Part shown: one piece after another, positions 45,692 through 63,346 of the stretch
Layout: each line of letters starts with the position of its first letter
Numbering within the stretch: position 1 is the first letter of the stretch
Assembly (NCBI GenBank): GCA_029262115.1
Contig: JAJCZZ010000034.1
Location: 27,366 to 91,365 of the forward strand
DNA length: 64,000 bases
Direction: 5' to 3'
Origin: Gemmatimonadota bacterium
GTDB taxonomy: Bacteria > Gemmatimonadota > Gemmatimonadetes > Longimicrobiales > Gaopeijiaceae
The notes under the pieces: model-generated
What the model was told of the DNA's origin: nothing
What the model saw: the letters and a program-made list of their open reading frames with translations, nothing else
Database searches by the model: none
Program-made: the position numbers and the translations under genes

Positions 45692-46984
45692 ATGGCCTAT
45701 ACGTTTCCATCGCGCAGAGTGTTCCTCAAGGCTCTCGGCGGAGCCGCCGTGGCGGGTCCCGCGCTCTTCCGGGCCGAGGAGGCTGCGGCCGCCCTGGACA
45801 CGTCCCGGAATGCCCTCCGTTTCACCCCCGGGGATGGGGCTTCGGTGCGCCGACTGCGAGCCGAGTACATGCTCTCGCCGGACGTGACCTACCTGAACCA
45901 CGCCTCCATCGGAACCGTCCCGCGGGTCGTCCACGAGGCCCACGCCTCGTACCTCGCCCTGTGCGAGACGCATCCGTCGCTCTACGTGTGGGGGGAACCC
46001 TGGAGGATCGTCCTCGAGGAGGCACGCGCCTCCGCTGCCGAGCTTCTGGGCGCCGACGCGGACGACCTCGCGGTCACGCACAACACCACGGAGGGCTTCA
46101 ACGTCCTGGCGCACGGCCTCCCGATCACGGCCGGCGACGAGGTGCTGTTCTCGTCCCTGAACCATCCGGGGGCCTCGGTCCCCTGGCTGCGTCTGGCGGA
46201 GCGCCGAGACTTCACCGTCCGCTCGTTCGACGTGCCCTTGGTTCGTGTTCCGGAGATGACTCCCGAGGAGGTCGTGGACCTCCACGTTCGGGCCCTGTCG
46301 CCCAGCACCCGCGTTCTGGTGATCCCCCACGTCGACAACCAGGTCGGCATGAAGCATCCGGTGGCCGAACTCGCGCGGGCCGTTCGAGCCCGGGGCGTTC
46401 GGTGGGTTCTGGTGGACGGTGCTCAGTCCGCCGGGATGGTGCCTGTCGACCTGGCGGCCATGGGCGCCGACGCCTACTCGATGAGCCCCCACAAATGGCT
46501 CCAGTCGCCGAAGGGGCTCGGTCTGTTCTGGGTGGCGCCCAGACTTCGTCGCACACTGCCGCCGATGTGGCACCGGACCGGCGGTGACGGCCGGGGGCCG
46601 TCGGCGCGGATGTACGAGGACTACTCCACCCGGGCCTGGCCGGCCGTGGCCGTGCTTTCTGACGCCCTCGACTTCCAGGAGTCGGTGGGGCAAGGCGCGA
46701 AGTCCGAGCGGTACGCTCTCCTGAGGGAGCACGTCCGGGCGCGGGTGGACGACGACCGCGGACTGAGTTGGCGGTCCCCTCGCCACCCGGTCCTGAGCTC
46801 CGTGATACAAGCCGTCGGGTCGACACGTGGCTCGGCGCCCGACATCGGTCGCCGGCTCGTTCGTGACCATCAGATCGACGTCCGCGCGTTTGGCGGCGAT
46901 CTCAACGCGCTTCGGTTGTCACCGAACGCCGCCACGACTGTGGATGAACTCGACCGTTGCCTGGACCAGATCGCCGTGGGGTAG
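45692..46984 (+). CDS. Tat-exported class V aminotransferase-fold enzyme (isopenicillin N epimerase-like)
   Basis: 430-aa PLP enzyme. A twin-arginine signal SRRVFLKALGGAAVAGPAL (7-25) predicts folded export. The body carries class V features: TYLNHASIGTVPRVV, THNTTEGFNVLAHGL, cofactor Asp in VDGAQSAGMVPVDL and the Schiff-base Lys in SMSPHKWLQSPKG. It groups with isopenicillin-N-epimerase or cysteine-desulfurase-like proteins; the reaction is unknown. AGGAAG lies 9-14 bases before ATG 45692. The 200-bp gap to rho carries both promoters. Confidence 0.9.
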   Translation: MAYTFPSRRVFLKALGGAAVAGPALFRAEEAAAALDTSRNALRFTPGDGASVRRLRAEYMLSPDVTYLNHASIGTVPRVVHEAHASYLALCETHPSLYVWGEPWRIVLEEARASAAELLGADADDLAVTHNTTEGFNVLAHGLPITAGDEVLFSSLNHPGASVPWLRLAERRDFTVRSFDVPLVRVPEMTPEEVVDLHVRALSPSTRVLVIPHVDNQVGMKHPVAELARAVRARGVRWVLVDGAQSAGMVPVDLAAMGADAYSMSPHKWLQSPKGLGLFWVAPRLRRTLPPMWHRTGGDGRGPSARMYEDYSTRAWPAVAVLSDALDFQESVGQGAKSERYALLREHVRARVDDDRGLSWRSPRHPVLSSVIQAVGSTRGSAPDIGRRLVRDHQIDVRAFGGDLNALRLSPNAATTVDELDRCLDQIAVG

Positions 46985-47110
46985 TCGTGAGAATCGACCG
47001 CTGTCCGAACCCGGTCGCGGTGGGATCGCGCGTCGGCGACAGGGACCGATCCTCGGCGAATCCCAGGCGAGCCACAGGGTGTCCTTGGCACGGGACAGCG
47101 ACGACGAGAA

Positions 47111-47229
47111 GTGACATTATATTATCGCATCTAACGCTATATTTTACATTAATTTACACCTGCTATGCATCTCTCGGCACATGCCGTGCATATGTAGACA
47201 TCGGTGACATATCTCCGGGAGGATCACGG
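47111..47229 (+). promoter_or_regulatory. AT-rich promoter/leader of the Arg-Pro-Ser repeat gene
   Basis: About 60 bases (47111-47170) are strikingly AT-rich for this window, with TATATT (47118), TATTAT (47120), TATATT (47138) and two TTTACA hexamers (47143, 47153). A ribosome-binding site GGGAGGA follows at about 47217-47223, before ATG 47230. The hexamers look like sigma-70 -35/-10 elements, but I cannot fix one pair. Low GC could also reflect a binding site for a nucleoid protein. Confidence 0.5.
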
Positions 47230-48870
47230 ATGAGAGCGATCGGACGAATCTCCACTGTTGTCGCGGCCCTGGCGGTCGTCGGCGTGAGCGCCCCTCCTGT
47301 CGAGGGGCAGCTGTCGGTGTCCTTTTCTGCGGGCTCCGCCTTCGACGGCGTCGGCTTCGGCGTCTCAGCCGGATACTACGAGCCGGGTCCCGCTTTCAGC
47401 GGCATCGCAATCGGCGTGGGCTGGAGCAGCGGCTGGGACCAGCCGTACGGCATCTACTCCCAGAGCTATGACGGTTGGCACCGCGGGTACCGCGGCGGGC
47501 ATGGCTCCTACTACGGCTCCAGCTACGGATCGTGCTGGGACTACTACTGGGACAGCTATTGGGACCCCTGGAACGAGTGGTACAACCAGTGCGTCGTAGC
47601 GGGGAGCGTCTGGTACGGCTCCCACCATGCACGGAGCTGGCGGGGACGCAATCGCTGGTACGGGCCGCGGGAGACGTTCGTCTACGTCCGCGACCCCTAC
47701 TGGCCGCCCTGGGGACCCAACTGGGCCTACGACCCGTACGCCGGGTACTGGGACGGCTGGCGTGACGGATTCGACCAGGGGTGGTACGGAGGACAGAGTC
47801 GTGGGCGGACCCGCGTCGTGTACAATGGCGGAGGTCGCCGAGGCGTGACGATCTATCGACCCTCCCCGCTGGCGCCCCGAGGACCCGGCTACAAGGAAAA
47901 TGCACGCGGCGCCCGCTCGTCGACGGCGCAGGCCCGGCCCCGGGGCAGCGCCGCCCCAACGGGACTGAACGCAGGACGGCCCTCCGCCGGAGGCCGTCCC
48001 ACATCCGGCCGCGCTCCGTCGGCCCGGCCGACAGCCGTCGGCCGCGATGCACCGACCCGTCAGGGCGCCACCCGGCCCGGTGGGGCCCGCACAGGAGCGC
48101 CGACCCGTACGGCCGCCCCCGGCAGGGCGACCGCTGGGACGTCCCGCGACCGGCCCACCGGCCGTGCGGTGACTCCGGGCCGTACGACGGTCCCCTCCCC
48201 TCGGGCGGGTGTGTCGAGCCGTCGTCCCTCCGAACGGATAGGTGGGGCCGCGGCCCGGCCGTCTTCGGACCGGGCGGGCTCCTCAGCACGTCCGAGTCGC
48301 CCGACGGCGACGCGTACAAGGCCGTCTGCGCGGCCGTCGAGCGGTTCGGCGCGACCGTCCACTCGGTCGACGCGGCCGTCAAGCGGAAGTGCGCGACCGT
48401 CGACCCGGACGACGCGACCGTCAAGCGGAAGTGCACGACCGTCGACCGGCAGTTCCAGGCCGTCAGCGCGGTCGACTCGCCCATCCGCTGGGAGTTCGTC
48501 ATCCGCCCGGCCGAGCCGGCCGTCGGCAGGGGCGTCCCGCCCATCGACCCGTCCGACGCGGCCGTCGGCCAGCAAGGCCCGACCCTCCGCGCGCCCGAGC
48601 CGGCCCTCGGGTAGCAGCGCGCGGCCGTCCACTCGTCCCTCGCGGCCGTCGGGAAGCAGTTCGAAGCCCTCGGCACGTCCCTCGCGGCCCGCCGCCGGCA
48701 GCTCGAGACCTTCGGCGCGTCCGAGCCGCCCGTCCGGCGGGAGCGCGAAGGCGTCCGCTCGCCCCAGCAAGCCCTCGGGTAGCAGCGCCAAGCGCCCAAG
48801 CGGCTCGCGGCCGGCGTCGTCGAAAAGCCGGCCCAAGGCCCGTCGTCCGGGGGGCGGCCTCGCGGCCTAG
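47230..48870 (+). CDS. exported repetitive protein: Tyr/Trp/Gly-rich domain plus Arg-Pro-Ser repeats
   Basis: 546 aa, not a family I recognise. Signal peptide about 1-27 (ends PPVEGQ). Residues about 55-215 are rich in Tyr, Trp, Gly and Asp (YYGSSYGSCWDYYWDSYWDP, DPYAGYWDGWRDGFDQGWYG). From about 235 to the end the chain is a disordered, highly basic Pro/Ser/Arg/Thr/Ala region. It has repeats of the form RPSSGSARPSTR-(S/T)-T, then RPSRPSGSSA, ending in Lys-rich KSRPKARRPGG. There are almost no acidic residues in the second half. It could bind polyanions (DNA, polysaccharide, teichoic-like polymers) at the surface; that is inference. Confidence 0.7.
   Translation: MRAIGRISTVVAALAVVGVSAPPVEGQLSVSFSAGSAFDGVGFGVSAGYYEPGPAFSGIAIGVGWSSGWDQPYGIYSQSYDGWHRGYRGGHGSYYGSSYGSCWDYYWDSYWDPWNEWYNQCVVAGSVWYGSHHARSWRGRNRWYGPRETFVYVRDPYWPPWGPNWAYDPYAGYWDGWRDGFDQGWYGGQSRGRTRVVYNGGGRRGVTIYRPSPLAPRGPGYKENARGARSSTAQARPRGSAAPTGLNAGRPSAGGRPTSGRAPSARPTAVGRDAPTRQGATRPGGARTGAPTRTAAPGRATAGTSRDRPTGRAVTPGRTTVPSPRAGVSSRRPSERIGGAAARPSSDRAGSSARPSRPTATRTRPSARPSSGSARPSTRSTRPSSGSARPSTRTTRPSSGSARPSTGSSRPSARSTRPSAGSSSSARPSRPSAGASRPSTRPTRPSASKARPSARPSRPSGSSARPSTRPSRPSGSSSKPSARPSRPAAGSSRPSARPSRPSGGSAKASARPSKPSGSSAKRPSGSRPASSKSRPKARRPGGGLAA
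48285..48845 (+). repeat. in-frame Arg-Pro-Ser tandem repeats
   Basis: Part of the repetitive protein gene. A 13-residue unit (S-S-G-S-A-R-P-S-T-R-x-T-R-P, 39 bp) is repeated about four times. It is followed by 10-12-residue units built on A-R-P-S-R-P-S-G. Codons TCG/CGG/CCG/TCC recur, so the DNA repeats as well as the protein. The array probably varies in length between strains. Confidence 0.75.
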
Positions 48871-48887: not shown

Positions 48888-50117
48888 TCAGCGACCACCC
48901 GGGACGAGCGTGCCAACTCGGACGACGAACCGACACGGGTTGCCTCCCATCCAGTAGCTGAGAGCCGCTGGGTGGGAGATGTCCCACACCGCAAGGTCGG
49001 CGCCGAAGCTCTCCTCCACCACGCCGACCCGATTTTCCAGCCCGAGAACGCGGGCCGCCGTGCGCGTCATCCCGGCCAGCGCCTCGGCGGGCGTGAGGCG
49101 GAAGAGCGTGCACGCCATGTTCATGGCCATCAGGGGCGAGCGCAGGGGCGACGATCCAGGATTCAGGTCCGTGGCCACGGCCATGGGTACCCCGTGCCTC
49201 CGGAAGGCCTCGACGGGCGGAACGCGGGCGTCTCGAAGGAAGTAGGCCGCGCCCGGCAGTAGCACCGCCACGGTTCCGGCCGCCGCCAGGGCCTCGACCC
49301 CTGCCTCGGAGGTGTACTCGAGGTGGTCGGCACTCCTCGCTCCGTGCCGGGCCGCCAGAGCCGCCCCGCCTCCGTCCGTCCGCTGATCGGCGTGCAGGCG
49401 CACGGGAAGCCCCATCGACGCCGCGGCGTCGAACACGCGGTCGCACTCGTCGGCCGTGAAGGCGATCTCCTCGAGGAAGGCGTCCACGGCGTCCGCCAGA
49501 CTCTCTTCGGCCGCGCGGGGAATCATCTCCTGACAAATCAGGTCGACGTACGCCTCCCGGCGGGAGGCGTACTCGGGCGGAAGCGCATGGGCGCCGAGCA
49601 AGGTCGTGACCACCCTCAGTCCGGTCGCTTCTCCGAGAGCGCGCCCGACGTCGAGCATCCGCAGTTCGGTGTCGACGTCGAGGCCGTATCCCGACTTGAT
49701 CTCGACGGTGGTGACGCCCGCAGCGCTCAGGTCGGCCAGGCGCGCGCGGGCTCCCGCCAGCAGTTCGTCGCGGGACGCCGCGCGCGTCGCCCGGACGGTC
49801 GAGAGGATCCCCCCGCCGGCCCGCGCCAGCTCCTCATAGGTGGCGCCGAGCAGGCGTTGCTCGAACTCCCGGATGCGATCGCCTCCGAACACGAGATGCG
49901 TATGGCAGTCGATCAGACCGGGGGTGACCCATCCCCCGCGCATGTCCACGCGCTCCACGGCCTCTCCCGGCGGGAGATCGACCCGGCGGCCCACCCAGGC
50001 GATCCGCCCGTCCCGGACAGCGACGCAGCCGTCCCGAATGGTCCCATACGGGTCCGGCGACTCCGCACGCATCGTGGCTACGTGGCCATTGACCAGCAGC
50101 ATGTCCCAGGTCGGCAC
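48888..50117 (-). CDS. hutI: imidazolonepropionase HutI
   Basis: Third step of histidine breakdown: hydrolysis of 4-imidazolone-5-propanoate to N-formimidoyl-L-glutamate. Metal-dependent amidohydrolase of 409 aa. Metal ligands are in [12 protein letters not shown] (about residue 70); [26 protein letters not shown] and VRLHADQ follow, then the late Asp in [13 protein letters not shown]. The GTG start at 50117 fits the family N-terminus ([14 protein letters not shown]). It is transcribed away from hutF, and its 3' end faces the repetitive protein gene. Confidence 0.95.
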
Positions 50118-50188
50118 GCCCCCTCCAGCAGCCGGTGGACGGCCGCGACATTGGCGCGGCTCTGGTGGGGAATCTACACTTCGGCGTC

Positions 50189-51562
50189 ATGGCCGACCTC
50201 TTCTTCAGATCCGCGCTGCTGCCGACCGGGTGGGCGGCCTCCGTGCGCATCACCGTCGGGTCGGACGGAGCGTTCGCGGACGTGGAGCCCGACTCGGAGC
50301 CCGCGAGCGGATCGGACGAGCACGGGATCGCGGTGCCGGGCATGACGAACGTCCACTCGCACGCCTTCCAGAGGGCGATGGCCGGTCTGACGGAGGTGCG
50401 CGGTCCCGAGGGCGACACCTTCTGGACGTGGCGATCGCGCATGTATGACTTCGTGGCCCGGTTGACGCCCGAGGACGTGGAAGCGATCGCCACGCAGCTC
50501 TACGCGGACCTCCTCCGGCACGGCTTCACCTCCGTGGTGGAGTTCCACTACCTGCGGAATCCTCCAGGGGGCGGACGCTACGACGACCCGACCCTGATGG
50601 GGCAACGCCTTCTGTCGGCCAGCCGAGCTGCGGGCATCGGCATGACGCTCCTGCCGGCCGTGTATCGCGCATCCGGCTTCGGCGGCGCGCTGCCTGAACC
50701 CGCGCAGGAGCGTTTCGTTGCCGACGTCAGCGAGTTCCTAAATGACGTGGCCGCGTTCAACCGGGCCACCAAGGACGATCCCGACCGCTGCGCGGGGCTC
50801 GCGCTCCACTCCCTGCGGGCCGTTTCCCCCGACGACCTGGACGAGACGCTCAGGGCCTATCGTCGTGAGGTGCCGGAGGGGCCGATCCACATCCATGTGG
50901 CAGAGCAGATCCGCGAAGTCGAAGAGTGCCTCGCGTGGTCCGGCGCCCGACCCGTGGAATGGCTTCTCGCCAACGCTCCCGTCGATTCTACGTGGTGCCT
51001 GATCCACGCGACCCACATGAACTCCGCGGAGGTCGAGGCATTCGCCGGTAGCGGGGCCGTTGCCGGGCTGTGCCCGACCACCGAGGCCAATCTGGGGGAT
51101 GGCCTGTTCGAACTCCCTTCGTATCTGGCAGCGAAGGGCCGTCTCGCGGTCGGCACGGACAGCCACGTCGGTTTGAGCCCGGCGGGGGAACTCCGGCTCC
51201 TCGAGTATGGTCAGCGCCTCACCCTCAGGGCGCGGAACCTCTCCGCCGGGAGTCCGGGCGTCTCGACGGGGCGCCGACTGATCGATCTGGCCCTCGAAGG
51301 GGGGAGCCAGGCATCGGGGAGGCCGGGAGGGCAGATCGCCGTCGGGTGCCGGGCCGATCTGGTGGTTCTCGACGACACGCTTCCCTGCCTGACCGGGAGG
51401 CAAGGTGACGAGGTCCTGGACGCCTGGATTTTCTCCGGAGACGATACGCCCGTCGGGGACGTGATGGTCGGTGGACGGTGGGTCGTGCGGGAATGCCGTC
51501 ACGTGGATCAGGACGGAATCGCCGACCGGTACCGCCAGGTGATGACCGCGCTGCTCCAGTAG
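50189..51562 (+). CDS. hutF: formimidoylglutamate deiminase HutF
   Basis: Converts N-formimidoyl-L-glutamate to N-formyl-L-glutamate plus ammonia. 457 aa. Amidohydrolase metal sites: NVHSHAFQRAMAGL (about residue 52), IHIHVAEQIREVEECL, LIHATHMNSAEVE, and Asp in VGTDSHVGLSPAGELRLLE. Its presence shows the Pseudomonas-type five-step Hut pathway, which then needs HutG (N-formylglutamate deformylase), not in this window. ATG at 50189; divergent from hutI with 71 bp between them, so both could answer to one operator. Confidence 0.95.
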   Translation: MADLFFRSALLPTGWAASVRITVGSDGAFADVEPDSEPASGSDEHGIAVPGMTNVHSHAFQRAMAGLTEVRGPEGDTFWTWRSRMYDFVARLTPEDVEAIATQLYADLLRHGFTSVVEFHYLRNPPGGGRYDDPTLMGQRLLSASRAAGIGMTLLPAVYRASGFGGALPEPAQERFVADVSEFLNDVAAFNRATKDDPDRCAGLALHSLRAVSPDDLDETLRAYRREVPEGPIHIHVAEQIREVEECLAWSGARPVEWLLANAPVDSTWCLIHATHMNSAEVEAFAGSGAVAGLCPTTEANLGDGLFELPSYLAAKGRLAVGTDSHVGLSPAGELRLLEYGQRLTLRARNLSAGSPGVSTGRRLIDLALEGGSQASGRPGGQIAVGCRADLVVLDDTLPCLTGRQGDEVLDAWIFSGDDTPVGDVMVGGRWVVRECRHVDQDGIADRYRQVMTALLQ

Positions 51563-51667: not shown

Positions 51668-53338
51668 CTACCCCTCGCCTTCCTTCATCGGAATGCGCAC
51701 GCCCTCGCGCTCGGCCGTCCGGAGGGCGATCTCGTACCCGGCATCCGCGTGGCGGATGACGCCCGTCCCCGGGTCGTTGGTCAGCACGCGCTCGATCCGC
51801 GTCCGCATCTCGGGGGTCCCGTCCGCCACGATCACCTGCCCGGCGTGCAGGGAGTTTCCGATTCCGACTCCACCCCCGTGGTGGAACGAGACCCAACTGG
51901 CGCCCGACGCCGTGTTCAGCAACGCGTTGAGGATCGGCCAGTCGGCGACGGCGTCCGTCCCGTCGCGCATCCCCTCGGTCTCACGGAAGGGAGACGCGAC
52001 CGACCCCGTATCCAGGTGATCCCGCCCGATCGCGATCGGCGCGCTGATCTCGCCGGTCGCGACCCGATCGTTGATGGCCACGCCGAACCGTGCGCGGTCG
52101 CCCTGACCGAGCCAGCAGATGCGCGCGGGCAGCCCCTGAAACTCCACGTCGCGCCGCGCCATGCGGATCCACCGGCACAGGTGCTCGTCGTGGGGAAACA
52201 TGTCCAGCACCAGGTCGTCCGTGCGGTGGATGTCGGCCGGGTCGCCCGACAGGGCTACCCATCGGAACGGGCCCTTTCCCTCGCAGAACAGGTCCCGGAT
52301 GTAGGCCGGAACGAAGCCGGGGTAGTCGAAGGCGTTTTCGTATCCGGCGTCGCGCGCGTATCCCCGGAGGTTGTTGCCGTAGTCCACCGCGACGGAGCCG
52401 AGAGCCTGAAGCTCAACGATCGCCTCGCAGTGCGTTCGGATCGACGCCATGCTCCGCCGAACGTAGTCCTCGGGGTCCTTGCCGCGGAGCGCATCCGCCT
52501 CGGCGAGGGTCAGCCCCGCGGGCACGTAGCCGTTCAACGGATCGTGCGCCGACGTCTGGTCGGTCACGATGTCCGGGACCGAGCCACGCCGCACCAGTTC
52601 AGGCAGGACCTCCGCGCAGTTGCCGACGAGACCCACCGACACGGCGTCGCCCGCCGCGGAGGCCCGCTCGATCCACCCAAGCGCCTCGTCGAGGTCGGCC
52701 GTCATCCGTTGGCAGTACCGCTTCTCGATCCGCCGACGGATGCGCTGTTCGTCCACCTCGACGCACAGGATGCTCGCCCCGTTCATGGTGGCGGCAAGAG
52801 GCTGCGCGCCCCCCATCCCTCCCATGCCACCGGTGAGGATCCACCGGCCCGCCAGGCTGCCGTCGAAGTGCCGGGCCGCCATGGCGCCGAACGTCTCGTA
52901 CGTGCCCTGAAGGATGCCCTGCGTGCCGATGTAGATCCACGAGCCGGCCGTCATCTGGCCGAACATCATGAGCCCCGCTCGCTCCAGTTCGTTGAAGTGA
53001 TCCCACGTCGCCCATTTCCCGACGAGGTTGCTGTTGGCGATGAGCACACGGGGCGCGTGGACGTGCGTGCGAAACACCCCGACGGGTTTGCCGGACTGGA
53101 CCAGCATGGTCTCGTCGTCGGCCAGCGTCTCCAGCGTGCGGACGAGCGCATCGTAGGCCTCCCAACTGCGGGCCGCGCGGCCCGTGCCGCCGTAGACGAC
53201 GAGGTCGTCCGGGCGTTCCGCGACGTCGGGATCGAGGTTGTTCATCAGCATCCGGAGCGCGGCTTCCTGCTGCCATCCCCTGCAGCGGAGCGTCGTGCCG
53301 CGCGGTGCGGAAACGGGTCGCGGGCCGTGGGTCGTCAT
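51668..53338 (-). CDS. hutU: urocanate hydratase HutU
   Basis: Second step of histidine breakdown: urocanate to imidazolonepropionate, using NAD+ as an electrophile. 556 aa, full length. Characteristic blocks: [60 protein letters not shown], catalytic-cysteine region [18 protein letters not shown], and [20 protein letters not shown] near the end. ATG at 53338 matches homologues. It follows hutH by 82 bp on the same strand. Confidence 0.96.
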
Positions 53339-53420: not shown

Positions 53421-54968
53421 TCATCTCCTGCCCTCCCGGGCCGCGTCGTGCGTGATCGAGGCGAATGTGCCGTCCGCGACGGCGGCCGCCGCCGCGGCCA
53501 GGTCGCCGGAGAGGACGCGGTCACCATCGAGCGGGGGGGAAAACGCACGCACAGCCGCGAATGCCCGCTCGACGCTCGGCGAGGAACGAAGCGGCCGGCG
53601 ATGTTCCAGTCCAGCCGCCGAGCACAGCAACTCACAGCCGAGCACCCGCTCGGCGCACTCCACGGCCTGGCGGGCCTTCCGGGCCGAGGCGAGGCCCATG
53701 CTGACGTGGTCCTCCTGATTCGCGCTCGTCGTGACGGAATCCACCGACGCGGGGTGGGACAGCACACGCATCTCGGCGAGGCAGTCCACGGCCGCCACCT
53801 GAGCGATCATGAAGCCGCTCTCCAGGCCGGGGCGGTCGGTCAGAAAGGCGGGCAGCCCCATCGACAGATCGGGGTTGAGCAGCCGCTCGATCCGCCGCTC
53901 GGAGATCGACGCCAGGTCGGTCACCGCAATCGTCAGGAAGTCCAATGCAGCCGACACCACCTGCGCGTGGAAGTTGCCCCCGCTCACGATGGCGTCCGCC
54001 TCGGGAAACACGAGCGGATTGTCGGTCGCGCTGTTCGCTTCGATCTCGAGAACGCGCCTCACATAAGCGAACGCATCTCTCGCGGCACCATGGACTTGCG
54101 GCATGCAGCGCAGAGCGTAGGCGTCCTGCACACGGGAGTCTCCCTCGCGGTGGCTCTCGCGGATCTCCGAGCTGTCGAGGAGGGCGCGCAGGCGGCGGGC
54201 GCTCTCCCGCTGTCCGGGGTGCGGACGCGCATCGTGTACCTCCGCGCGGAAGGCCTCGGGCGTCCCGAGAAGCGCGTCCACCGACATGGCCCCGACCACC
54301 TCGGCGGTCTCGAGCACGCGCTCCGCCGCCAGCAACGCCAGGATGCCGAGCCCGGTCGTCGCCTGCGTGCCGTTGATCAGGGCGAGTCCCTCCTTCGCCT
54401 CCAGCCCCATCGGCGCGAGCCCTGCCGGGGCGAGCAGATCCACCGTGTCGTGCTCCGACCCGCGCTGTTCGCTCCGGCCCTCGCCCAGGATCGCGAGCGC
54501 GACGTGCGCCAACGGAGCGAGATCGCCCGACGCCCCGACCGACCCGTAGCGAGGCACGCGGGGGTGGATCCCCTCGTTCAGGAGCGCGATCAGGCGCTCC
54601 ACCAGCGCCAGGCGGCAGCCGGAATGGCCGCGCGCCAGTGCGTTCGCCCGCAGAAGCACCAGCGCGCGCACGGCCGTGCGGTCGAGCGGGTCGCCCATTC
54701 CCGAGGCGTGGCTGCGCACCAGATTGTGCTGCAGGTCGGAGCGTTGCTCCGGGGCGATGACCACCTCCGCGAGGCGGCCGAAGCCCGTCGTGACGCCGTA
54801 GACCGGCGCGCCGGAGGCCACCTTCGCTTCGATGAAGTCGCGCGAGGCTCGGATGGCGTCGCACGCGCCCGGGCTGAGGCTGACGCGGGCGGAGAGGTCG
54901 GTGGCCACCCTGCGGACGTCCCCGAGCGAGAGGGAGCGACCGTCCAGGACCACGTCCGGCGCCGTCAC
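53421..54968 (-). CDS. hutH: histidine ammonia-lyase HutH
   Basis: First step of histidine breakdown, releasing ammonia and urocanate. 515 aa. The self-made MIO cofactor arises from Ala-Ser-Gly in [14 protein letters not shown] (about 144). The conserved N-terminal [13 protein letters not shown] and later [30 protein letters not shown] and [12 protein letters not shown] motifs are present. It starts 7 bp after the stop of the AhpD-like gene, so the two share a transcript that continues into hutU. Confidence 0.96.
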
Positions 54969-54975
54969 CGGCCCC

Positions 54976-55611
54976 TCATCGGTGTAGGGCCTCGAACTCG
55001 TCGCGCTTCAGGACCATGTCCGCGTCCTCCCAGTACGGTTCCAGTTCCACTCCGAGGCCGTCCGCCAGGCGGTTCACGTAGTTGTAGTAGGCCGTGACCT
55101 GGCAGATGTCCAGAATGGCGGCGTCCCCGAAGCCGACATCTCTCAGGGCATCCACATCCGCTCGTTCCACCTCCGCCGGACTGCGGGTGAGCATCCGCAC
55201 ATAGCGGAGCATGGCCCGGTCGTCCGCCGAAACCGAAGCGCCATCGCCTTCGAAGATCAAGCTCCTGCCCAGCGCGTGTGACCCGGTCAGCGTACGGAGA
55301 CCCGCCCCGTGATGGACCATTCAGTAGAAGCAGTCGTTCGCCGCGGACACCGTCACGGCAATCATCTCGCGCTGCACGCGGCTCAGCGGCGACGGCCCCC
55401 GCATCAGGTGTGCGTAGAGGAGCGCGTGATGATCCATCGACGGAGGGTTCAGCCCATGGACCCACAAGATGTTGTCCACCCCATGCTCACCCGCGAGCCG
55501 GTCGCGCAGGTCGGCCAGCCGTCCCTGCGCGTCCGTGGGCGGCACGTATTCGATGTGGGCCACGCGATGCTCCGTCCGACGTGGGGGGCGGTACGAAAGC
55601 GTCTCGGTCAT
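54976..55611 (-). CDS. AhpD-like peroxidase-related protein, probable selenoprotein (in-frame UGA = Sec97)
   Basis: One frame of 211 residues interrupted only by TGA at 55323-55321. The left part ends REMIAVTVSAANDCFY and the right part continues MVHHGAGLRTLTG. In AhpD/carboxymuconolactone-decarboxylase 'peroxidase-related' proteins this segment reads N-x-C-x-Y-C-V-x-H-H-x-A-x-L-R, so UGA replaces the second redox cysteine exactly (Cys94, Sec97). Both halves look intact and are in the same frame. A hairpin suited to SECIS lies at 55310-55294. ATG at 55611 gives the usual length. It should be a thiol-dependent peroxidase or disulfide reductase of the cytosol, first gene of an operon with hutH and hutU. 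The alternative is a nonsense mutation or sequencing error. Confidence 0.8.
55294..55310 (-). promoter_or_regulatory. candidate bacterial SECIS hairpin
   Basis: In the transcript, 11-27 bases after the UGA, ACGGGG-CGGGU-CUCCGU folds as a six-pair stem (five Watson-Crick, one G-U) with a five-base loop containing GGU. Bacterial SECIS elements sit directly downstream of the UGA and present a loop G-U to SelB. The GGUCU at +19 to +23 matches, as far as I recall, the spacing and loop sequence of E. coli fdhF. Confidence 0.6.
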
Positions 55612-55760
55612 TCGAGAGCCGGATCGTCTCAGGAGCGTGAACATGCTCCGGCCCCACCCCACGATCAAGCCGCTGCACGCTCCGGGGCGCCTTGCGTGCC
55701 CTTCCGCGCCGACGGCACATTCGCCCCGCCCGCCCCACCGATCCCCGTCCGGCACCCACA

Positions 55761-56840
55761 GTGAAGATCTACGAGACCAACGCTCCCGACTGGGAGCAGG
55801 ATCTGGGCGACCTGAAGCTGCGGCTGATGGCGGCGCTGATCTTCATGGTCGTCATCACGATGGTGGGCACCCTCGGATTCCACCTCATCGATCCGAGCGC
55901 GGGGTGGGTTCGCTCCTTTTTCATGACGGCCATCACCCTGACCACGGTCGGGTACGGCCACGAGGTCCAGATCGATTCGAACGGGGCCATGATCTTCACG
56001 GCCGCATTGATCATCGCGGGCATGGGCGGGGTGCTCTACTTCGTGTCGACGGCCACCGCCTTCATTCTCGAAGGCCAACTGGGTCACGTTTTCAGGAGAC
56101 GCCGCATGGCGAAGGATCTCGCCGAACTGTCCGACCACCTGATCGTGTGCGGCTCCGGGCCGACGCCCTTCTATGCCGCCCAGGAGTTGGTGTCGGTGGG
56201 CCGCGCGGTCGTGTTGATCGTGCCCGACGCCGCAGCGGCGCGGGAGGTAGCGACCGAGCTACCCGGAGCCCACCTCGTAGTGGGAGATCCGGGAGACGAC
56301 GACGTTCTCCGCCTATCCGGGGTCGAGCGTGCGGCCGGGTTGGTCGCGTGCACCGAATCGGACCGGGAGAACCTGGTCATTTCGTTGTCCGCGCGGCACC
56401 TCAGCCCCACCCTCCGCATCGTCTCCCGAGTCCAGGACGTCGCGTCCACGGAAAAGGTACAGAAGGTCGGGGCGGACGCGGTGGTTTCTCCGGACTTCAT
56501 CGGCGGCCTGCGCATGGCGTCGGAGCTCATCCGGCCCACGGTTGTGACATTCCTCGACGTCATGCTGCGCGATCAGGACCTCAACCTCCGCATCGAGGAG
56601 GTGCTCGTGCCGAAGGGGTCGACGTCGGTGGGGCGCTCGCTCGCCGACCTCCGCCTGTCCGAGCTCGATGGTACCCTCCTGCTCGCCCTTCGAGAGCCGG
56701 ACGGCTCCTGGCGGTACAACCCTCCCGGGGACCACAGGGTGAGGGGGGGCTCGGTTCTGGTCATGATGGGGTCCCCGGACCACGCGCGGGCTCTAGCGGA
56801 ACATGTGGACGGACGGATGACGTCGAGCCCGGCCTGGTGA
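55761..56840 (+). CDS. potassium channel with RCK (TrkA-N/TrkA-C) domains
   Basis: 359-aa K+ channel. Two membrane helices (about 24-46 and 72-100) flank the pore with selectivity filter TLTTVGYGHE. Then a TrkA-N Rossmann domain (about 122-240, HLIVCGSGPTPFYAAQELV; GDPGDDDVLRLSGVERA) and a TrkA-C-like domain (about 270-345, VGRSLADLRLSELDGTLLLA) gate it by ligand. The dinucleotide motif GxGxx(F) lacks the full GxGxxG, so NAD binding may be altered. GTG at 55761 starts just before the first helix. Divergent from the selenoprotein-type gene. Confidence 0.93.
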   Translation: MKIYETNAPDWEQDLGDLKLRLMAALIFMVVITMVGTLGFHLIDPSAGWVRSFFMTAITLTTVGYGHEVQIDSNGAMIFTAALIIAGMGGVLYFVSTATAFILEGQLGHVFRRRRMAKDLAELSDHLIVCGSGPTPFYAAQELVSVGRAVVLIVPDAAAAREVATELPGAHLVVGDPGDDDVLRLSGVERAAGLVACTESDRENLVISLSARHLSPTLRIVSRVQDVASTEKVQKVGADAVVSPDFIGGLRMASELIRPTVVTFLDVMLRDQDLNLRIEEVLVPKGSTSVGRSLADLRLSELDGTLLLALREPDGSWRYNPPGDHRVRGGSVLVMMGSPDHARALAEHVDGRMTSSPAW

Positions 56841-61166: not shown

Positions 61167-62840
<1,674 letters not shown>

Positions 62841-63346
62841 GCTCGTGTCACCTTGTGTGTGTGCCACGCGTGTGTGCCGCGCGTGTGGTTCTTCGACCGT
62901 TGGTGGCTGACGCGGCTGCGTCAAGGGTGGATACGCGCGGTGGCTCGGCGGGTTTCGGGCAACCCGCGGGGCGCGGGACCCCTCGCCGGTGATCGGTTCA
63001 TCCCGCACATCAGGGTGCCCCATCCGCCCCTTGACAGATTTCGGCGGGCGCGGCCGACCGTGTCCCGGACAGACCTGAGATTCCGTCCCTGCGGCCTTCT
63101 GGGCTTCTCTGCCCTCCGTGAGCGGCCGACTGGTCCATTTTCGGCCTCCGAGCCCGCGTTCAGGCCGCACCGGGCGCCTCCGGACGTCCCAGAACCCCCT
63201 GTTCGGGGGTATCCATTTAACCGGACCTATCGGGATTGAGCGTTCTCCAGGGGCGGTTGGCGGGGGGTCGCTCAAGGCTTGGTGGGCGGACGCATCGGCC
63301 AGCGGCGCCATCCGACACCGGCCGATACCTTTCGGGTCCCGCGTCG
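62841..63346. other. 506-bp intergenic region without recognisable gene
   Basis: Lies between two diverging genes. An open minus-strand frame crosses it in phase with the hydrolase, but its composition (Pro/Arg-rich, no motif) does not look coding. I searched for the N-terminal part expected of a DUF222 protein and did not find it in any frame. No tRNA, terminator or repeat noted. Confidence 0.5.

What the first reader, a model, noticed from the sequence alone, without database searches (positions are those of the whole stretch)
54976..55611. AhpD-like gene with in-frame UGA at the redox cysteine: a probable selenoprotein heading the hut operon
The frame is intact on both sides of a single TGA (55323-55321). 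The flanks NDCFY / MVHHGAGLR align with N-x-C-x-Y-C-V-x-H-H-x-A-x-L of AhpD-type peroxidase-related proteins, putting the TGA on the second CxxC cysteine. A random stop would rarely hit that codon. AhpD-like selenoproteins with Sec in CxxC have, to my knowledge, been reported from genome and metagenome surveys. Placement 7 bp before hutH in one operon is unusual.
Basis: partly seen in the sequence, partly recalled or inferred. Interest (0 to 1): 0.93.

Follow-up and report, generated by a model that had tools for sequence, protein, structure and literature searches.

The report
Selenocysteine AhpD-like protein heading hut operon
In a bacterium likely of the phylum Gemmatimonadota, a gene for an AhpD-like (antioxidant-type) protein carries a UGA codon that is predicted to be read as the rare amino acid selenocysteine, and it sits directly before the histidine-breakdown gene hutH, where its product likely acts as a selenium-dependent redox enzyme.

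Summary
The finding holds. The genome holds tRNA-Sec, selA, selB, a TGA-bearing selD and a second AhpD-like gene with TGA at the same site. In the taxonomic family, 55 of 55 fetched orthologues have TGA there; all 68 genomes with a TGA form (E 1e-25) have selA or tRNA-Sec, against 1 of 11 genomes with Cys forms only. After the TGA lies a hairpin ACGGRG-CGGGN-CTCCGT; five of its six codons are the five most synonymously constrained of 44 tested, it keeps 5.85 of 6 pairs against 3.85 after synonymous recoding, and 8 Cys loci lack it: a predicted SECIS. hutH follows immediately in 46 of 53 informative loci. The protein belongs to a known selenoprotein family (AhpD-like, TIGR01926, CxxU; PMC13188914, PMC1088965). 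New, as far as my searches reach, is the stable coupling to hut genes. Selenocysteine insertion, peroxidase activity and a role in histidine catabolism are inferred, not shown.

The parts
54976..55563 (-). AhpD-like (TIGR01926) predicted selenoprotein gene, likely GTG start at 55563-55561, stop TGA 54976-54978; 195 aa with Sec81
55564..55611 (-).
   Evidence: not shared by relatives, pLDDT < 50
55321..55323 (-). in-frame TGA, predicted selenocysteine codon at the second redox position of C-F-Y-U
   Evidence: sel genes
55294..55310 (-). predicted bacterial SECIS upper hairpin ACGGGG-CGGGT-CTCCGT, loop starting 16 nt after the TGA
53421..54968 (-). hutH, histidine ammonia-lyase, GTG start 7 nt after the selenoprotein gene's stop
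   Evidence: TIGR01225 664.5 bits, cut-off 539.15
51668..53338 (-). hutU, urocanate hydratase (start approximate)
   Evidence: TIGR01228 941.6 bits, cut-off 375
50135..51562 (+). hutF, formimidoylglutamate deiminase (opposite strand, between hutU and hutI)
   Evidence: TIGR02022 566.6 bits, cut-off 413.05
48888..50117 (-). hutI, imidazolonepropionase
   Evidence: TIGR01224 458.5 bits, cut-off 298.15

Best explanation
The gene at 54976-55563 (-) is an AhpD-like (TIGR01926) gene with an in-frame UGA at the second redox position of its C-x-x-C motif, and this UGA is predicted to be translated as selenocysteine by the genome's own SelA/SelB/SelD/tRNA-Sec machinery, likely guided by the conserved hairpin just after the UGA. 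Shown by sequence: TGA at the site in every fetched orthologue, the sel genes, the selected hairpin, Cys at the site in relatives that mostly lack the sel genes, and co-linearity with hutH-hutU. Inferred: SelB binds the hairpin and delivers Sec-tRNA; the product is a thiol/selenol peroxidase or reductase in which Glu, Cys, Tyr, Sec and His form the AhpD proton relay, with the selenolate attacking a (hydro)peroxide and the neighbouring Cys resolving it. Inferred and less sure: it is co-expressed with histidine catabolism because it removes an oxidant tied to that pathway, for example peroxide from air oxidation of the labile intermediate 4-imidazolone-5-propionate (recalled chemistry, no call), or keeps a Hut enzyme reduced.
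For: TIGR01926 129.8 bits against 81.8; PF02627. tRNA-Sec 65.9 bits, anticodon TCA; selB 302.7, selA 527, selD 382.5 bits, all over cut-off, selD with its own TGA. Site codon: TGA in 55 of 55 orthologues, 17 of 17 fetched paralogues (of 48 listed) and 80 of 80 named loci (49 of them the same as family loci); TGC/TGT in 12 of 12 family matches listed without a stop, leaving out a G097 fragment that does not reach the site. selA or tRNA-Sec in 68 of 68 TGA genomes (65 by selA, 3 by tRNA-Sec) against 1 of 11 Cys-only genomes, Fisher 7.6e-12, not corrected for phylogeny. Hairpin: five of its six codons rank 1-5 of 44 conserved codons for lost synonymous freedom, z -10 to -15; observed 5.85 of 6 pairs against 3.85 (sd 0.11, maximum 4.22 in 1000) after synonymous recoding; the paralogue has a different hairpin, 6.00 against 4.47, with a C-G to U-A swap in 3 of 17 (three close relatives); 2 of 87 rows of the first type show such a swap too; 8 Cys loci form at most 3 of the 6 pairs. 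The five catalytic positions E82, C94, Y96, U97, H101 have the spacing of PA0269's Glu36, Cys48, Tyr50, Cys51, His55 (passages of PMC3141380) and are invariant in 17 aligned orthologues. hutH directly downstream in 46 of 53 informative loci.
Against: No protein, RNA or labelling data. Folded alone, the window's 60 nt around the TGA are not more stable than shuffles (z = +1.42). The hut role is circumstantial: 7 of 53 informative orthologues are not next to hutH; 39 of 90 family genomes with hutH have no full-length orthologue in the set (one of these, G097, holds a 3' fragment before its hutH); outside the family only two Chloroflexota loci of the 31 additional named ones sit by a hut gene, and of the 30 best loci of a Chloroflexota class only one does, itself one of those two. 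G076, a Cys-only genome, has selA and tRNA-Sec (6% contamination). In several other Gemmatimonadota the neighbours are groES/groEL-type genes.
Confidence: 0.88

Rival explanations
1. Nonsense mutation or sequencing error: the gene is a decaying or misread Cys-type ahpD.
For: One base apart from TGC/TGT; the window comes from a 110-contig assembly.
Against: TGA at the same codon in 55 of 55 orthologues and in 31 additional named relatives from several phyla; intact, conserved frame after it; sel genes present.
Confidence: 0.01
2. UGA is a genuine stop and the gene makes a 5' half and a re-started 3' half (ATG at 55320-55318).
For: An ATG directly follows the TGA in the window.
Against: The ATG is not conserved: 52 of 55 orthologues have ATC/ATT/ATA Ile there; the catalytic residues fall on both sides; a selected hairpin follows the TGA.
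Confidence: 0.02
3. The genome reassigns TGA to an amino acid everywhere (for example Trp or Gly) instead of locally to selenocysteine.
For: Database gene calls put W at this site in 32 of 120 listed homologues, as if read under another code.
Against: hutH, hutI, the ORF 55692-56840 and this gene itself end in TGA in the window; sel machinery present; hairpin conserved; Cys, not Trp, in the 12 family matches without a stop.
Confidence: 0.01
4. It is a selenoprotein, but the hut position is only inherited operon order: a general antioxidant or thiol-disulphide protein with no link to histidine.
For: Unlinked in 7 of 53 informative loci, three of whose genomes have hutH elsewhere; relatives elsewhere sit by groES/groEL-type or other genes; 11 genus-g2 genomes with selA have hutH without it at E 1e-25.
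Against: Linkage kept across many genera of the family; among selA-positive genomes 50 of 53 with the orthologue have hutH against 28 of 39 without (Fisher 0.006, not corrected for phylogeny); two Chloroflexota loci have it behind hutU in another gene order.
Confidence: 0.4

Closest known systems
AhpD-like selenoprotein, TIGR01926/COG2128, CxxU (Sargasso Sea 2005; 'AhpD-like 1' of GOS 2008; listed in the 2026 review PMC13188914)
   Same: Same NCBIfam family, same C-x-x-U motif, bacterial SECIS after the UGA, Cys homologues elsewhere.
   Different: The main texts of PMC13188914, PMC2398784 and PMC1088965 hold neither 'Gemmatimonad' nor 'hut' nor 'histidine'.
NF041238 AhpD_rel_CFYUT (seleno)protein (in PMC13188914: 'hypothetical protein 1' of the Sargasso Sea)
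   Same: Shares the C-F-Y-U motif (by the model's name) and the AhpD core; weak match 63.2 bits.
   Different: Below the cut-off of 175; that model is 357 positions long, this protein 195 aa.
Cys-type peroxidase-related proteins with solved structures: 2pfx, 3c1l (Mlr4105), 6k40 (Deinococcus AhpD), 2oyo, 2prr
   Same: Same fold; the aligned entries shown have Cys at both motif places; 3c1l about 34% identity, TM-score to target about 0.84.
   Different: Cys where this protein has the predicted Sec (alignments seen for 2pfx, 3c1l and 6k40).
Canonical AhpD (M. tuberculosis) and PA0269
   Same: Same five proton-relay positions and spacing as PA0269.
   Different: Low overall similarity (1gu9: Foldseek E 0.16). 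Genomic link to ahpC was not examined.

Membership tests
TIGR01926 peroxidase-related enzyme | score over the curated cut-off | tested here: met
   129.8 against 81.8 bits
TIGR01926 peroxidase-related enzyme | AhpD-like fold | tested here: met
   AlphaFold2 pLDDT 85.0, pTM 0.82 with Cys for Sec; best PDB hits are peroxidase-related AhpD-like proteins
AhpD-like CxxU selenoprotein | in-frame TGA at the second Cys of CxxC, aligned with Cys in homologues | tested here: met
AhpD-like CxxU selenoprotein | selA, selB, selC, selD in the same genome | tested here: met
AhpD-like CxxU selenoprotein | bacterial SECIS: stem-loop right after the UGA with G in a small apical loop (as described in PMC1088965) | tested here: met
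   hairpin, loop CGGGN; single-sequence stability not above shuffles
AhpD-like CxxU selenoprotein | selenium in the purified protein | not testable with these tools
   needs 75Se or mass spectrometry
NF041238 AhpD_rel_CFYUT | score over the curated cut-off | tested here: not met
   63.2 against 175 bits
AhpD-type peroxidase (proton relay) | Glu, Cys, Tyr/His, Cys, His with spacing 12, 2, 1, 4 | tested here: met
   E82, C94, Y96, U97 (Sec in place of the second Cys), H101
AhpD-type peroxidase (proton relay) | peroxidase activity | not testable with these tools
   no assay possible

The most novel reading that the evidence does not exclude
Selenium gates histidine catabolism in these bacteria: the UGA of the first gene is a selenium checkpoint. 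When Sec-tRNA is available ribosomes pass it and reach the end of ahpD, which overlaps or adjoins the hutH start (extrapolated -16 to +11 nt in 46 loci), so hutH is translated by coupling; when it is not, translation and then transcription of the hut genes drop. The selenoprotein itself would be a dedicated Hut accessory enzyme that destroys an oxidant formed in the pathway.
Probability: 0.17. Interest if true: 0.78.

Novelty: new member of a known kind. Interest (0 to 1): 0.52.

Why it matters
It adds a well-supported selenoprotein group to Gemmatimonadota and points to a link, not found in the papers that I could search, between selenium and a central amino-acid breakdown pathway. The gene arrangement makes the open question of what AhpD-like selenoproteins do directly testable: histidine gives a condition and hutH a readout. 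It also shows a practical problem: such genes seem to enter databases truncated, or with Trp at the active-site position.

Tried and rejected
Single-sequence folding gave z = +1.42, no support; the comparative test replaced it, with control positions giving nothing (A at B-type positions 2.49 against 2.64; B at A-type positions 3.12 against 3.21). A recurrent hut link outside the family was tested: two Chloroflexota loci (L186, L210) looked promising but 29 of the 30 best loci of L210's class (83 of 396 genomes matched) have no hutH, hutU or hutI match in flanks of at most 1.5 kb, so I do not claim it as general. Orthologues not beside hutH were compared for another shared neighbour (nearest ORFs of 90 aa or more); none was shared by more than two of the seven. 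A viral-contig scan for the TGA plus hairpin pattern found 0. hutG was not looked for.

Paper searches: selenoprotein + AhpD-like (7 papers), selenoprotein + Gemmatimonad (18), selenoprotein + histidine ammonia-lyase (12), selenocysteine + histidine utilization (2), AhpD + urocanate (0), TIGR01926 (3), AhpD + Cys133 (4), alkylhydroperoxidase + histidine ammonia-lyase (1). Mostly judged from listing and abstract starts; none of these shows this link. Passages of PMC2830990 (Corynebacterium with separate hut and sel clusters) and PMC4731212 do not link the two. imidazolonepropionate + unstable gave 0, so that chemistry is recalled. PMC13188914 was read by passages and one section; PMC2398784, PMC1794560, PMC1088965, PMC9312934 and PMC3141380 by passages.

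Counts and what was dropped: the 55 orthologues are the family genes with at least 53% identity, two of them cut by a contig end (L106, L107, not informative for hut); left out are a second G026 fragment (with TGA), a G097 fragment that lies 3' of the TGA and before hutH, and the 47% G055 gene (with TGA, kept apart as L108). 17 of 48 listed paralogue rows were fetched; 12 of 12 Cys rows were read, 8 with 5 kb flanks and 4 later for the codon alone, so hairpin and hut tests cover 8. One search used a motif search that itself demands C-x-x-[U or C], so it could not show other residues; every locus given to it matched. Distances to hutH are extrapolated from BLAST alignments. The tree is a quick one with 37 of 108 inner branches open. 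Codon pools for the recoding test come from the same genes outside the tested stretch.

Full report
Observation. The minus-strand frame 54976-55611 is intact except for one TGA at 55321-55323 and ends in TGA at 54976-54978. The likely start is GTG 55563-55561 behind GGAG, since relatives begin there and the upstream 16 residues are neither conserved nor well modelled; the product would be 195 aa with Sec81. hutH starts 7 nt after the stop. hutH, hutU, hutI and, on the other strand, hutF pass their curated cut-offs; hutG was not looked for.

Identity. The read-through protein is a TIGR01926 peroxidase-related enzyme (129.8 bits, cut-off 81.8) with a CMD domain. Its best solved relatives are 2pfx, 3c1l, 6k40, 2oyo and 2prr. 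A model with Cys for Sec (pLDDT 85.0, pTM 0.82) finds the same entries by fold. The AhpD proton-relay residues, as described for PA0269 (Glu36, Cys48, Tyr50, Cys51, His55; PMC3141380, passages), correspond to E82, C94, Y96, U97 and H101 in the 211-residue numbering, with identical spacing, and all are invariant in 17 aligned orthologues. The TGA therefore sits on the second redox position, which in M. tuberculosis AhpD is Cys133, one of the two catalytic cysteines.

Machinery. The genome (5.45 Mb, 110 contigs, completeness 95.66) holds tRNA-Sec (C59, 65.9 bits, ARAGORN anticodon tca), selA (C53), selB (C93) and selD (C17), all over cut-off. selD has its own in-frame TGA in ...GAGUACKLG.... A second AhpD-like gene (C5, 43% identical) has TGA at the same motif position.

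Conservation. Of 121 genomes of the same taxonomic family, 79 have a match at E 1e-25. The codon at the site is TGA in 55 of 55 hut-type orthologues and 17 of 17 fetched paralogues (of 48 listed), and TGC or TGT in all 12 listed matches without a stop that reach the site. selA occurs in 65 of the 68 genomes with a TGA form; the other three (G048, G098, G099; 88, 89 and 63% complete) have tRNA-Sec. Of the 11 genomes with Cys forms only, 10 lack both and one, G076, has both. All 80 named loci kept from the genome collection (the best 80 of 187) carry TGA; the scan patterns did not include the TGA codon. 49 of them are identical to family loci; the 31 additional ones are titled Gemmatimonadota, Zixiibacteriota, KSB1, Chloroflexota, Planctomycetota, Calditrichota, Acidobacteriota and Bacteroidota lineages; the Bacteroidetes record equals a KSB1 record in protein sequence and may be a binning error. 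Cys homologues of 54-58% identity exist in the protein database (P0003-P0005).

SECIS. Straight after the TGA, from the fourth codon on, the orthologues share CAC GGR GCG GGN CTC CGT. The amino acids (HGAGLR) are invariant, but the synonymous choices are nearly so too: His CAC 55/55 while the His codon just before is split 26/29, Ala GCG 55/55, Leu CTC 53/55, Gly GGG or GGA only (33/22), Arg CGT 47/55. These five codons are the top five of 44 tested columns for lost synonymous freedom (z -10 to -15); the sixth, the loop Gly, is at z -2.7. They form a six-pair stem with a CGGGN loop beginning 16 nt after the TGA. Pairs formed: 5.85 of 6, against 3.85 (maximum 4.22 in 1000) when codons are redrawn synonymously; for 32 more distant Sec genes 5.50 against 3.77. 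The paralogue uses another hairpin 8 nt further on (GAYCTC-CGNGNN-GARRTC), 6.00 against 4.47, with a paired C-G to U-A change in 3 of 17, all close relatives. Control positions show nothing. The 8 Cys loci tested form at most 3 of the 6 pairs. Against this, the window's own sequence is not more stable than shuffles when folded alone.

Hut link. In 46 of 53 informative orthologue loci hutH lies directly downstream (extrapolated -16 to +11 nt; overlapping in 36), and hutU follows in each of the 37 linked loci with 2,200 nt or more of room. None of 26 paralogue, Cys or L108 loci with room has a hutH, hutU or hutI match in the fetched flanks. Seven orthologues are unlinked (L055, L059, L062, L067, L081, L084, L104); four of those genomes have no hutH at E 1e-80 and three have it elsewhere. 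Within the family the orthologue occurs in 51 of 90 hutH genomes and in 4 of 31 without (Fisher 1.9e-5; among selA-positive genomes 0.006; neither corrected for phylogeny; G097 with its fragment counted as without), so Hut does not require it. Outside the family, two Chloroflexota loci have a nitroreductase-hutU-ahpD order (nitroreductase by Pfam on L186 only), but the wider class does not (1 of 30). The 55 orthologues are one side of a branch in a quick tree (SH-aLRT 94, not starred), on which the hut label needs at least 8 changes.

Mechanism. Sec insertion is as well supported as sequence allows. That the protein is a selenol/thiol peroxidase or reductase follows from the residue set and family; PA0269 itself is only a weak peroxidase, and the natural substrate is unknown. 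The link with histidine is co-linearity only. My preferred reason is protection of, or from, the Hut pathway (imidazolonepropionate is recalled to oxidise readily in air); the bolder reading is that the UGA makes hut expression selenium-dependent through translational coupling. hutH has a GAGGGG box of its own just before its GTG, so coupling need not be strict.

Novelty. The family is known: AhpD-like, COG2128/TIGR01926, CxxU, reported as new from the Sargasso Sea (PMC1088965), among the commonest in GOS (299 genes, PMC2398784) and listed in the 2026 review (PMC13188914), whose operon section does not mention hut. I found no report of the hut link in the searches listed under Tried and rejected. 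Hence a new member of a known kind, with an apparently new, testable context.

Noticed in passing
L114 (G000:C5:91806-92384): A second AhpD-like gene with TGA at the same site and a different hairpin; the 17 fetched loci of this type form a clade of their own and have no hut match in their flanks.
   Followed up: partly
L018 (G000:C17:3609-4535): selD of this genome carries an in-frame TGA in its N-terminal part (GAGUACKLG), so the selenophosphate synthetase is itself a predicted selenoprotein.
   Followed up: partly
protein database hits: Of the 120 listed homologues (of 232), 32 have Trp and 9 Gly, Arg or Leu at the Sec site and 29 begin after it: probably TGA misread or genes truncated by gene callers; DNA not checked.
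   Followed up: partly
L183, L184, L193, L195, L201, L207: In these Gemmatimonadota the Sec AhpD-like gene lies upstream of a groES- and/or groEL-type gene (Pfam checked on L193, the others by BLAST clustering).
   Followed up: partly
L186:181-2562 and L210:1603-3938: Two Chloroflexota have a nitroreductase-like gene and hutU directly before the Sec AhpD-like gene.
   Followed up: partly
window 46957-48870 (+) and 61167-63311 (-): Long low-complexity Ser-Arg-Pro-rich ORF at the first place; at the second a long ORF with an alpha/beta-hydrolase-like protein behind a repeat-rich N-terminus. Names from reading the translation only.
   Followed up: no
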